From Methanolobus bombayensis (GTDB taxonomy: Archaea; Halobacteriota; Methanosarcinia; Methanosarcinales; Methanosarcinaceae), in the NCBI RefSeq assembly GCF_017873415.1, contig NZ_JAGGKD010000001.1, positions 310,001 through 374,000 on the forward strand: DNA of 64,000 nt, read 5' to 3'. The notes beneath the pieces were generated by a model that was not told where the DNA came from, did not search any database, and saw only the letters and a program-made list of their open reading frames with translations. The translations under genes were made by a program, and so were the position numbers. This document shows, one piece after another, positions 6,179-10,672 of the stretch. The number at the start of each line of letters is the position of its first letter. Position 1 is the stretch's first letter.

Positions 6179-6231
6179 GCTATTACAAAAAATCAATTTA
6201 GGTAATATACTTCAGAATCAGAGAATATGAA

Positions 6232-6304
6232 GCCTCGAGCGTGATTTGAACACGCGACCTAGTGATTACAAATCACTCGCTCTGCCGGGCTGAGCCATCG
6301 AGGC
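6232..6304 (-). tRNA. tRNA-Thr (anticodon UGU)
   Basis: Read on the minus strand, the gene is 73 nt without encoded CCA. A perfect 7-bp acceptor stem (GCCTCGA/TCGAGGC) is present. The anticodon arm AGTGA-TTTGTAA-TCACT puts TGT at positions 34-36, reading ACA (Thr). The T arm is GCGTG-TTCAAAT-CACGC. There is no intron. A TATA-like CATAAAA lies about 25 nt upstream on the minus strand. Confidence 0.95.
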
Positions 6305-6402
6305 AACATGATTGCATTCCACATCTTTTTATGGAAAGCATTCCCTTACATATCATAATAGCAGATAAATTTTATGGTAGCAGACTACCCGGAGATATAC
6401 CT

Positions 6403-6963
6403 ATGTGGCATGAAATTTCGAGGATTGGAAAAAAACTTGTGGCAAACGGGCTGGTAGAATCACATTTTGGCAACATCAGTGTAAGAATTGGCAGCAAAAT
6501 GCTTATCACACGCAGCGGTTGCGCCTTGGACGAGATAACAGAGGATAACGTAGTAGAGGTGCGCATCGATGGAACATCTCCCCTTGACATGATTGCCTCA
6601 TCCGAAGCTATTGTTCACCGTGCCATCTATAGCAAAACTCCTGCTCTTGCAATCGTTCATGCACATTGTCCATTTGCAGTGACACTCTCTCTCCTTGAAG
6701 AAAGTGAAAGCATAAAGCCTGCAGACAGCGAAGGGCAATATTTCCTGGGGGAAGTTCCGATTGTAAAGGGCGGCATAGGCTCTGATGAGCTTGCGGGCAA
6801 CCTTGCATCAGCCCTTGCGAATAACAAAACCGCGATTATCTACAGTCACGGCACTTTTGCCATAGGAAAAGTACTGGATGAGGCTTATGTACTCACCACA
6901 CAGGTGGAGCACTCATGCAAGATAAAATACTGGTACGACCTTGCAGTAAACACCAGAGCATGA
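6403..6963 (+). CDS. Class II aldolase/adducin family protein (fuculose-phosphate aldolase-like)
   Basis: 186 residues from ATG 6403, which has GGAG about 8 nt upstream. The longer open frame from 6262 runs through the tRNA gene and is rejected. Class II aldolase features are visible: the substrate loop GNIS, the catalytic/metal glutamate SSEA (E68), the zinc ligands HAH (H86, H88) and a third His in YSHG (about residue 149). The family cleaves or condenses DHAP-type phosphosugars. In Methanocaldococcus the homologue (MJ1418) was proposed to make lactaldehyde for the coenzyme F420 side chain, and a similar role here is inference. It is a stand-alone gene on the strand opposite the tRNA. Confidence 0.8.
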   Translation: MWHEISRIGKKLVANGLVESHFGNISVRIGSKMLITRSGCALDEITEDNVVEVRIDGTSPLDMIASSEAIVHRAIYSKTPALAIVHAHCPFAVTLSLLEESESIKPADSEGQYFLGEVPIVKGGIGSDELAGNLASALANNKTAIIYSHGTFAIGKVLDEAYVLTTQVEHSCKIKYWYDLAVNTRA

Positions 6964-8312: not shown

Positions 8313-9779
8313 ATGTCACATGAAAATGAAAAATCAATTTCAGATATTCTCACTAAAGTAAATGATAATACATGGGAGGTGCCCGGTAATTACAAACCTG
8401 GAATGAATGTTCCGGGAAGGATATTCGTATCAAAACCTCTCCTTGATATGCTGGAACCTGAAACCATCGATCAGGTCGCAAACGTGGCATCCCTGCCGGG
8501 AATACAGAAATACTCCATGGCAATGCCAGATGCTCACCTTGGTTATGGATTCTCCATTGGAGGAGTTGCAGCATTCGATAAGATTAAAGGTGTGATAAGC
8601 CCGGGTGGTGTAGGTTTTGACATCAACTGCGGAGTACGCCTCATCCGTTCTAATCTCATGGAAGATGATGTCCGTCCCAGGCTTTCAGAGCTTCTGGATG
8701 CATTATTCGATGCAATACCTTCAGGTGTTGGTTCCAAAAGTCGTATGAGACTTAACGATGAGGAATTGGATGACGTATTTATCAATGGGGTAAACTGGGC
8801 TGTTAAGAATGGATATGGTATGAAGGGAGACCTAAGTCATTGTGAGAGCAATGGTAAGATGTCCGGTGCTGATCCTTCAAAAGTAAGTATTAAAGCCCGG
8901 AAAAGAGGTCGTCCGCAGATAGGAACTCTTGGAAGTGGGAACCATTTCCTTGAAGTGCAGTATGTGGATAAGGTCTATGATGAAGAAGCTGCAAAAGCTT
9001 TCGGCCTTAAGGAAGGACAGATAACCTTCATGATCCACTGCGGTTCACGAGGTGCAGGTCACCAGATATGTACTGACCATCTCCAGAAGCTCACACAGGC
9101 TTCCAAGAAGTACAAGATTCCTCTCCCTGATAAACAACTGGCATGTGCTCCTGCAAGCTCAGAGGAAGCACAGGATTATTTCAAGGCCATGACATGTGCG
9201 GCAAACTATGCATGGGTGAACCGCCAGATGATAATGCACTGGGCACGTGAGGTCTTTGATGAGTTCTTCAAGGCTCAGCACGGTGACCTTGGACTAGATC
9301 TTGTGTATGATGTCGCTCACAATGTTGCCAAGCTTGAGAAACACATGATCGATGGCGAAGAAAAGGAAGTCTATGTTCACAGGAAAGGTGCTACAAGAGC
9401 ATTCCCTGCAGATCATCCTGAGATTCCGGAGGATTACAAGGGCATAGGACAGCCGGTCATTATTCCTGGAAGTATGGGCACTGCATCTTATGTGCTAAAA
9501 GGCTGTCCTGTTGCCATGGAACTGACCTTCGGTAGTGCCTGTCACGGTGCAGGAAGGGTTATGAGCCGAAGCAAGGCAAAGAAAGAGCTGCGTGGTGAAG
9601 AGATTCAGAAAGAACTGAAGTCTGAGGGAATTATCGTAAGAGCAACCCAGCCATCACTCATAGCCGAGGAAGCACCGGAAGTATACAAATCCAGCAGTGA
9701 TGTTGTAGATGTCGTACACAATCTCGGCATTGCCACAAAAGTTGCACGTGTACTTCCAATGGGAGTTGTCAAAGGTTGA
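8313..9779 (+). CDS. rtcB: tRNA-splicing RNA ligase RtcB
   Basis: 488 residues, the usual length for an intein-free archaeal RtcB. It joins 2',3'-cyclic-phosphate and 5'-OH ends using GTP and Mn2+. Metal and catalytic residues are visible: Cys106 in FDINCG, His in GSGNHF, His in IHCGSRG, His in DVAHN, and the guanylylated His411 in SACHGAG. The C-terminus ends in the expected PMGVVKG. The gene follows archease. Its 3' end runs into a T-rich tract (about 9800-9830) likely to terminate transcription. Confidence 0.95.
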
Positions 9780-9883
9780 TCTGCCTTTGACTTAATTTCT
9801 CTTTTTAGTTTTTCTCTTTTTTCTCAGAATAAGTTTTAATTTTAAAATTGATGGTATATTGATGATATTTATGTACTAATTAC

Positions 9884-9892
9884 TTTAAAAAT
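9884..9892 (+). promoter_or_regulatory. TATA-like box before the candidate RNA
   Basis: TTTAAAAAT lies about 25-30 nt before position 9915. No start codon with a coding frame follows, but the inverted-repeat element at 9943-10058 does. A transcript from here would begin upstream of the first hairpin. Confidence 0.4.
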
Positions 9893-9942
9893 ATTTGATA
9901 TGCAGAGTTTACACTAATCAGTTAAGCAACATAAGAAAAGTC

Positions 9943-10058
9943 TTGCTCATTATTGAGCAACGAGGAAACGGGGACATGTTTGAGGGGATGAATGGTTTTG
10001 CTTGGTTACAGTTACTATACCTTTGAATACAGTTACAAGCAGTAGTTCCCGTTTCCTC
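9943..10058 (+). ncRNA. Candidate structured RNA (two-stem element) between rtcB and the PUA gene
   Basis: This lies in the 419-nt gap between rtcB and the next gene. A perfect 7-bp hairpin (TTGCTCA-TTAT-TGAGCAA, 9943-9960) is followed after one base by a long stem. GAGGAAACGGGGAC (9962-9975) pairs with GTTCCCGTTTCCTC (10045-10058), 14 bp with a single G-U. Within the 69-nt interior, GCTTG (10000-10004) pairs with CAAGC (10036-10040), and TACAGTTAC occurs twice (10007-10015, 10028-10036). A TATA-like box lies upstream. No open frame explains it. It could be a small RNA or a tiny inverted-repeat mobile element. Confidence 0.45.
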
Positions 10059-10198
10059 AACTTATAATTGGTCATTATTATATATAAATCTGTTTGACAT
10101 TATTTATATAGCAAATAAGTTCCACTTCCTTAAATATGAGATAATCTCATATCAATTTAACCGCTATCATTTTAAAACTTATACTTTATTTAGCAACT

Positions 10199-10672
10199 AT
10201 GAGCAATGCAGATAAAAATCTCATTAGAGTAAGGACAATGGCCGACATTCAGTTCGGTAAGGGTTGTGGAGAGATCCTTTTTCCTGACGGTGTTGCATTC
10301 CAGCTTTCCAGGACAAAACGTGTAAGACAGGTCCAGTTCAACGGAAAGCACATGGCAACAGTTCGTGCAAGGGACGGAATGCTCACTCTCAGCATAGACG
10401 GAGCTGCTGCACTTCATCAGGGACTTGAAAAGCCTGCATCAAGAGTTGTGATCTGTGATGATGCAGTTCCATTTGTCTCAAAAGGAAAAACCGCTTTTGC
10501 AAAACACGTAGTTGCAGTTGACCCGGAACTAAGGGCAGGAGACGAGGTTATAATAGTTGATGGAAAGGATGAGATCCTTGCAACAGGGCAGCTATTACTT
10601 TCACCTGCTGAAGCACTTCACTTGGACAGGGGTCCTGCAGTTGATGTAAGGCGGGGGATAGCACAATCTTAG
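10199..10672 (+). CDS. Stand-alone PUA-domain protein resembling the C-terminal part of archaeal TGT/ArcS
   Basis: 157 residues. The first half (IQFGKGCGEILF, RTKRVRQV, DGMLTLSIDGAAAL) matches what I know of the domain that precedes PUA in archaeal tRNA-guanine transglycosylase. The second half (FVSKGKTAFAKHVV, LRAGDEVIIVD, GPAVDVRRG) is a PUA RNA-binding domain. No catalytic TGT barrel is present, so this looks like a separate RNA-binding subunit that would work with a catalytic protein encoded elsewhere in archaeosine formation. This is inferred from pattern. A generic PUA RNA-binding protein is the alternative. It starts at ATG 10199, with TATA-like TATATAAA at about 10080 upstream. Confidence 0.7.
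   Translation: MSNADKNLIRVRTMADIQFGKGCGEILFPDGVAFQLSRTKRVRQVQFNGKHMATVRARDGMLTLSIDGAAALHQGLEKPASRVVICDDAVPFVSKGKTAFAKHVVAVDPELRAGDEVIIVDGKDEILATGQLLLSPAEALHLDRGPAVDVRRGIAQS

What the first reader, a model, noticed from the sequence alone, without database searches (positions are those of the whole stretch)
9884..10060. Structured RNA candidate downstream of rtcB
A 7-bp hairpin directly followed by a 14-bp closing stem (9962-9975 with 10045-10058), an inner 5-bp stem, a repeated TACAGTTAC in the interior and a TATA-like box at the right distance cannot be chance in a 419-nt non-coding gap. It is not a tRNA, C/D or classic H/ACA form as far as I can see. Its position next to the RNA ligase RtcB and archease recalls bacterial loci where RtcB neighbours Y-like RNAs. 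That link is speculative.
Basis: partly seen in the sequence, partly recalled or inferred. Interest (0 to 1): 0.58.

Follow-up and report, generated by a model that had tools for sequence, protein, structure and literature searches.

The report
Archaeal antisense RNA with conserved target
Next to the RNA-ligase gene rtcB of a methane-producing archaeon lies a small RNA gene whose exposed loop matches hairpins at the start of one regulator gene's messenger; loop and hairpins have changed together in relatives, so the RNA probably controls that gene.

Summary
The structure is real, single-copy and conserved, but it lies on the opposite strand from the one read. In 65 of 111 family genomes (8 of 14 genera, among them Methanolobus, Methanococcoides, Methanohalophilus, Methanomethylovorans and Methanosalsum) a ~97-nt RNA sits between rtcB and a PUA-domain gene. 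On the minus strand a TATA box lies 30 nt upstream in 64 of 65 loci and a T-run follows in 59 of 65; on the plus strand 8 (scattered) and 0.

The near-invariant unpaired loop AACCAUUCAUCCCCUCAA is complementary (median 15 nt, up to 20) to one or two hairpin loops (CUGAGGGGAUGAAUGG) in the 5' leader of a distant gene encoding a winged-helix protein. RNA and target gene co-occur: both in 63 family genomes, neither in 44, one alone in 4 incomplete ones. ANME-2 relatives carry the same loop in other stems, and loop and leader show compensatory changes in ANME-2 and in one Methanosalsum-clade genome.

Best reading: a dedicated trans-acting antisense sRNA controlling translation or stability of that mRNA. 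RtcB is incidental: genera without the RNA keep rtcB. There is no Rfam match. In ANME-2 the element precedes two riboflavin genes, so there it may act from mRNA leaders. Expression and direction of regulation are untested.

The parts
9962..10058 (-). core of the small RNA (97 nt between the ends of the closing stem); 5' end is at 10058
   Evidence: conserved in 65 of 111 family genomes, one copy each by model R1
10045..10058 (-). P1 closing stem, 5' arm GAGGAAACGGGAAC
   Evidence: P1 has 4 pairs with changes on both sides; 97.6% of cells paired
9962..9975 (-). P1 closing stem, 3' arm GTCCCCGTTTCCTC
10036..10041 (-). P2 stem, 5' arm TGCTTG
   Evidence: absent from most Methanohalophilus-clade sequences (L042 type)
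9999..10004 (-). P2 stem, 3' arm CAAGCA
   Evidence: compensatory C-G to U-A in L063
9980..9997 (-). near-invariant unpaired antisense loop AACCATTCATCCCCTCAA, complementary to the leader hairpins of the winged-helix gene (G000:C1:408109-408136 and 408142-408171, outside the window)
10081..10088 (-). TATA box TTTATATA, 30 nt upstream of P1 on the minus strand
   Evidence: matching box at the same place in 64 of 65 loci
   Evidence: hairpin not conserved, a following T-run is
9933..9941 (-). T-rich tract ACTTTTCTT, presumed 3' end
   Evidence: a run of 4 or more T within 40 nt in 59 of 65 loci on this strand, 0 of 65 on the other
8313..9779 (+). rtcB, convergent neighbour; presumed bystander
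10199..10672 (+). PUA/TGT_C2-domain protein gene, divergent neighbour; presumed bystander

Best explanation
Window 9962-10058 (minus strand) encodes a trans-acting antisense small RNA. Its long P1 stem and the following U-run protect the ends and terminate it; P1 and P2 hold a ~18-nt segment (AACCAUUCAUCCCCUCAA) open. That segment pairs with the loops and then the 3' arms of one or two hairpins (CUGAGGGGAUGAAUGG) in the 5' leader of one mRNA, which encodes a protein with a C-terminal winged-helix domain. The nearer hairpin ends about 20 nt before the start codon (positions -49 to -20), largely inside the maximal ribosome-covered zone used for Methanosarcina mazei (-39 to +19). Most likely the duplex hinders ribosome loading and lowers synthesis of the regulator. 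Shown here by sequence: conservation, strand signals, structure, complementarity, co-occurrence and paired changes. Inferred: that the RNA is made, that it binds, and the sign of the effect (repression favoured; stabilisation or activation possible).
For: Conserved single-copy RNA in 65 of 111 family genomes, next to rtcB in 62 of 65 and to the PUA gene in 62 of 65 loci. Structure: 98.4% of cells paired; 5 pairs changed on both sides; 12 such cells against 2.7 +/- 1.4 in shuffles, 0 of 500. Minus-strand TATA 64/65 and T-run 59/65 against 8/65 (not at a fixed place) and 0/65. Complementarity to own leader in all 59 pairs examined: longest Watson-Crick run median 15, range 10-20; shuffled leaders mean 6.8, max 13. 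Leader hairpins: 123 sites in 69 leaders, 94% with a stem of 5 or more bp, control 43%. Co-occurrence in the family: both 63, neither 44, RNA only 2, target only 2. Intermolecular changes: ANME-2 CCAUCCAUCC with GGAUGGAUGG against CCAUUCAUCC with GGAUGAAUGG; G071 CCGUUCAUCC with GGAUGAACGG. The motif search at up to 3 mismatches found the RNA and the leader in most genomes that have them.
Against: No transcript or binding data. Three of 59 pairs have contiguous complementarity under 14 nt even with G-U (G057, G105, G143). In much of Methanolobus and in Methanomethylovorans the first leader site has mismatches and only the second fits. Leaders of two related families (f3, f5) keep GAGGGG hairpins although no such RNA was found there, so the hairpins may have another job. 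Own-sequence P1 pairs slightly better on the + strand, and across 45 distinct sequences the G-U against A-C counts favour minus only weakly, 12 to 7. The motif occupies the same base pairs in DNA, so a DNA-binding site shared by both loci is not fully excluded.
Confidence: 0.74

Rival explanations
1. Shared DNA operator: the winged-helix protein (or another) binds TGAGGGGATGAATGG as DNA, in its own leader region and in the RNA locus; RNA pairing is incidental.
For: The target has a predicted winged-helix fold, the leader site is tandem and flanked by inverted repeats, and the motif occurs at two loci in most genomes that have it.
Against: Leader stems keep pairing while their sequence changes completely between families (CCAT/ATGG; GGCCGCAA/TTGCGGCC; GCCACATT/AGTGTGGC). 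The RNA locus keeps covarying P1/P2 stems. Orientation relative to the promoter is fixed: C-strand in the RNA at all three locus types, G-strand in the leader. Sites lie well downstream of the TATA boxes.
Confidence: 0.1
2. Plus-strand decoy: the RNA is read from the + strand, displays UUUGAGGGGAUGAAUGG like the leader, and titrates a protein that binds the leader hairpins.
For: The + strand holds the same motif as the leader and folds well; protein-titrating decoy RNAs are a known principle (CsrB/RsmZ, recalled).
Against: Promoter and terminator signals are on the minus strand. The CCAU/AUGG hairpin around the motif, kept in leaders, is not kept at this locus (sequences). In ANME-2 too the TATA-like sequence precedes the C-strand.
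Confidence: 0.06
3. Leader element or riboswitch: the C-loop element is a cis-regulator of riboflavin genes in ANME-2 (ribD_C and ribH), and the stand-alone form in Methanosarcinaceae is a relict or sRNA derivative of it.
For: In ANME-2 all 17 genomes carry the element and 14 of 17 have two copies; the loci examined lie upstream of RibD_C or lumazine synthase genes.
Against: It is not upstream of these two genes in the f1, f3 and f5 genomes examined (20 genomes). No Rfam riboswitch match in the window copy. It does not explain 15-20 nt complementarity to the winged-helix leader or the paired changes.
Confidence: 0.1

Closest known systems
Methanosarcina mazei sRNA162 (PMC3510493; abstract and passages seen)
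   Same: Intergenic archaeal sRNA of a related methanogen; a single-stranded segment pairs in trans with an mRNA for a transcription factor, near its ribosome binding site.
   Different: Found by its authors only in Methanosarcina species and its linker is the most variable part; 191 nt, three stem-loops. Here the pairing segment is the most conserved part, the target has dedicated hairpins, and the RNA was not found in the g13 (Methanosarcina-like) genomes searched.
Methanosarcina mazei sRNA154 and sRNA41 (review PMC5867862; passages seen)
   Same: Archaeal intergenic sRNAs with structured loops that pair with mRNAs and block translation or stabilise them.
   Different: Linked to nitrogen; sRNA154 has several targets. 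Here one target was found.
Loop-to-hairpin antisense pairs of bacterial plasmids (such as RNAI/RNAII, CopA/CopT; recalled)
   Same: Complementary loop first meets a hairpin loop, then pairing spreads.
   Different: Those named are cis-encoded and fully complementary; here the two genes are about 88 kb apart and the RNA loop is open, not a small hairpin loop.
Bacterial Y RNAs next to rtcB/rsr loci
   Same: Small structured RNA next to rtcB.
   Different: Opposite strand, no Rfam match, no need for rtcB in relatives.

Membership tests
trans-encoded antisense sRNA (archaeal intergenic sRNA) | own promoter in an intergenic region | tested here: met
   TATA-like box at -30 of P1 in 64 of 65 loci; sequence evidence only
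trans-encoded antisense sRNA (archaeal intergenic sRNA) | unpaired segment complementary to an unlinked mRNA, with co-variation | tested here: met
trans-encoded antisense sRNA (archaeal intergenic sRNA) | expressed as a small RNA | not testable with these tools
   PMC5378194 reports 195 sRNAs in Methanolobus psychrophilus; its Table S6 could not be opened (0 supplement look-ups)
trans-encoded antisense sRNA (archaeal intergenic sRNA) | changes target translation or stability | not testable with these tools
   needs bench work
Y RNA / RtcB-associated RNA | matches a known Y RNA family model | tested here: not met
   no Rfam family at E up to 5 on 9880-10120, both strands
Y RNA / RtcB-associated RNA | tied to rtcB in evolution | tested here: not met
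   rtcB in genera without the RNA; ANME-2 copies examined lie elsewhere
C/D box or H/ACA guide RNA, tRNA | family model or C/D boxes | tested here: not met
   no TGATGA or CTGA in the 97-nt RNA sense by inspection
miniature inverted-repeat element | many dispersed copies | tested here: not met
   one copy in the genome; one match per genome
riboflavin (FMN) riboswitch | family model | tested here: not met
   for the window copy; ANME-2 copies were not scanned with Rfam

The most novel reading that the evidence does not exclude
A regulator gene in Methanosarcinales carries dedicated leader hairpins that are read by an antisense loop which evolution moves between carriers: a stand-alone sRNA gene in Methanosarcinaceae, and leader elements of ribD and ribH in ANME-2. 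There the riboflavin transcripts themselves, or short RNAs released from their leaders, would control the regulator's mRNA: RNA-to-RNA cross-talk between genes, kept by intermolecular covariation.
Probability: 0.25. Interest if true: 0.82.

Novelty: new variant of a known kind. Interest (0 to 1): 0.66.

Why it matters
Few archaeal sRNAs have known targets, and sRNA162 was reported only in close relatives of its host. This pair shows conservation over 8 genera and a second family, with the target readable from sequence and both partners changing together. That makes an archaeal sRNA-mRNA interaction testable by two-sided mutation in cultured methanogens, and gives a handle on an uncharacterised regulator and a possible tie to riboflavin genes in methane-oxidising ANME-2.

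Tried and rejected
RtcB or Y-RNA role: rejected. Mobile element: rejected. Archaellum link for the target (PF01917): archaellin is found in 87 of 111 family genomes including many without the RNA, so no co-occurrence. RNA hidden at the PUA or rtcB gene of genera lacking it: 20 stretches (L097-L116) scanned unfiltered with R1, best E 0.11; L096, scanned in the same call, is the ANME-2 element at 1.2e-05. Motif hits in g5 (L123) and f3 (L132-134) have no RNA-like stem by eye and look like chance. Four of 47 hits in genome contigs (L214, L216, L247, L248) lie outside Methanosarcinales and lack either stem: chance. Riboflavin leaders in 20 f1/f3/f5 genomes: no element. Solved-structure and NCBIfam look-up of the target protein: nothing; Pfam only a sub-threshold Penicillinase_R; fold search gives only a generic winged helix. 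Rows dropped: one search left out the six g10 loci cut short at TTCCCT (one sequence); one search left out L166 (leader cut off by the contig) and L137 and L149 (duplicates); one search used 51 of the 63 f1 genomes with both genes, because only those leaders were in hand, and 8 ANME-2 genomes.

Literature: searches gave no paper that I recognised as describing this RNA; only listings, plus passages of PMC5378194, PMC3510493 and PMC5867862, were seen.

Full report
WHAT IS THERE. The stem, hairpin and repeat described lie in the 419-nt gap between rtcB (8313-9779) and a gene for a PUA/TGT_C2-domain protein (10199-10672). Both strands fold better than dinucleotide shuffles. There is no tRNA there and no Rfam family matches, even at E up to 5.

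CONSERVATION. A DNA search with 9884-10070 matched 65 of 111 genomes of the family, 8 of 14 genera; in its own genome there is one copy. In 62 of 65 loci rtcB lies next to it and in 62 of 65 the PUA gene does; each of the six exceptions lacks only one of the two within the stretch fetched. Contigs of the same length with record titles place the genera as Methanolobus (the window's own genus), Methanococcoides, Methanohalophilus, Methanomethylovorans and Methanosalsum, among others. Forty-six distinct sequences were aligned. In the structure named (P1 10 pairs, P2 5 pairs) 98.4% of cells pair; five pairs change on both sides, in 12 cells, against 2.7 +/- 1.4 in shuffles, 0 of 500; slid versions pair 39-52%. 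A covariance model (R1) finds the same 65 of 111 and 66 of 237 in the class, the extra one (G136) being weak (E 6.7e-4) and informative, see below.

STRAND. On the minus strand a TATA-like box starts 30-31 nt before P1 in 64 of 65 loci (the 65th has a near match), and a run of 4 or more T lies within 40 nt after P1 in 59 of 65. On the plus strand the numbers are 8 (not at a fixed position) and 0. G-U against A-C counts in P1 favour minus only weakly, 12 to 7, and the window's own stem is slightly better on plus. I take the gene to be on the minus strand, from about 10060 to about 9933.

THE PARTNER. The most conserved part is unpaired: AACCAUUCAUCCCCUCAA. A pattern search over the order (185 genomes, up to 3 mismatches) found a second site in most genomes with the RNA, about 88 kb away in its own genome. 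It lies, as the complement, in the 5' leader of a gene for a 327-aa protein (G000:C1:408191-409171). The leader carries hairpins with loop UCUGAGGGGAUGA closed by CCAU/AUGG-like stems, two in most genomes, one in others. All 69 leaders counted have at least one GAGGGG; of 123 sites 94% are flanked by a stem of 5 or more bp, control positions 43%. Stem sequences differ wholly in other families while pairing is kept, which speaks for RNA hairpins.

PAIRING. For 59 genomes with both elements in hand (51 of the 63 family genomes with both, and 8 ANME-2), the longest Watson-Crick run between RNA and own leader is 10-20 nt, median 15; against shuffled leaders mean 6.8, largest 13. Allowing G-U, 56 of 59 reach 14 nt or more. 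Two changes are paired between the molecules: in ANME-2 the RNA has CCAUCC and the leader GGAUGG where the family has CCAUUC and GAAUGG; in G071 the RNA has CCGUU and the second leader site AACGG. The first lies in the leader loop, so leader folding alone does not explain it.

CO-OCCURRENCE. In the family, 63 genomes have RNA and target gene, 44 neither, 2 only the RNA (60% and 83% complete), 2 only the target (75% and 76%). Genera lacking both (g4, g5, g6, g8, g13) keep rtcB and the PUA gene, in the genomes whose places I compared not next to each other. So the partner is the distant gene, not rtcB. One such genome, G074, has a 5,751,492-bp contig, the size I recall for Methanosarcina acetivorans.

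ANME-2. The weak hit in G136 proved to be the same loop in another stem (GGAAUUCGGG/CCCGAAUUCC). A second model (R2) finds it in 17 of 17 genomes of that family (f4), two copies in 14 of 17. The copies looked at lie upstream of a RibD_C gene and of lumazine synthase, ribH, in the same orientation as these genes. The target gene is found in 13 of 17; the leaders read there have one GAGGGG hairpin. Rib genes of 20 f1, f3 and f5 genomes have no such element. Within f4 P1 itself shows no double change; its sequence is wholly different from P1 of the Methanosarcinaceae.

OTHER FAMILIES. f3 (17 of 17) and f5 (32 of 34) have the target gene; the six leaders read have GAGGGG hairpins, but no RNA was found in those families. 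Either their RNA has diverged, or the hairpins have an older role, for example a protein site, that the antisense RNA later exploited. I cannot tell.

TARGET PROTEIN. N-terminal beta-beta-alpha part, long Q/P-rich linker in Methanosarcinaceae (short in most ANME-2 and f5 rows), C-terminal winged helix. Fold matches are generic winged-helix DNA binders, best Z 9.0. Function unknown; archaellum genes do not co-occur.

MECHANISM. The nearer hairpin spans -49 to -20 of the start codon in its own genome, the SD-like GAGG about 10 nt before the start. [quoted passage not shown] Repression is therefore my first choice; sRNA154 shows that stabilisation is also possible (PMC5867862, passage). Binding and sign are inferred, not shown.

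NOVELTY. The kind, an archaeal trans-acting sRNA pairing with a leader, is known. The RNA family, its target and the pairwise covariation I found in no search (PMC open-licence papers only). The 2015 transcriptome of Methanolobus psychrophilus lists 195 sRNAs in a supplement I could not read (passages), so the transcript may already be recorded there.

Noticed in passing
L096 567-639 (+); L269-L271, match 1501-1578: In ANME-2 genomes two structured elements with the same loop lie upstream of RibD_C and ribH genes; a possible leader regulation of riboflavin synthesis.
   Followed up: partly
L193-L198, 5' leaders: Leaders of the winged-helix gene in families f3 and f5 keep GAGGGG hairpin loops although no antisense RNA was found there.
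   Followed up: partly
L117 2404-2480: Upstream of the two target hairpins the Methanolobus leader has a further possible stem (ATTGTGAA ... TTCACAA), seen in several relatives.
   Followed up: no
window 6231-6304: tRNA-Thr (anticodon TGT) gene on the minus strand overlaps the first bases of the ORF listed at 6262-6963, so that ORF's start is probably further in.
   Followed up: no
G057 (L014 and L147): Both partners look eroded here: P1 is imperfect and both leader sites have insertions; with G-U allowed its pairing (13 nt) is the shortest among the Methanolobus genomes counted.
   Followed up: no
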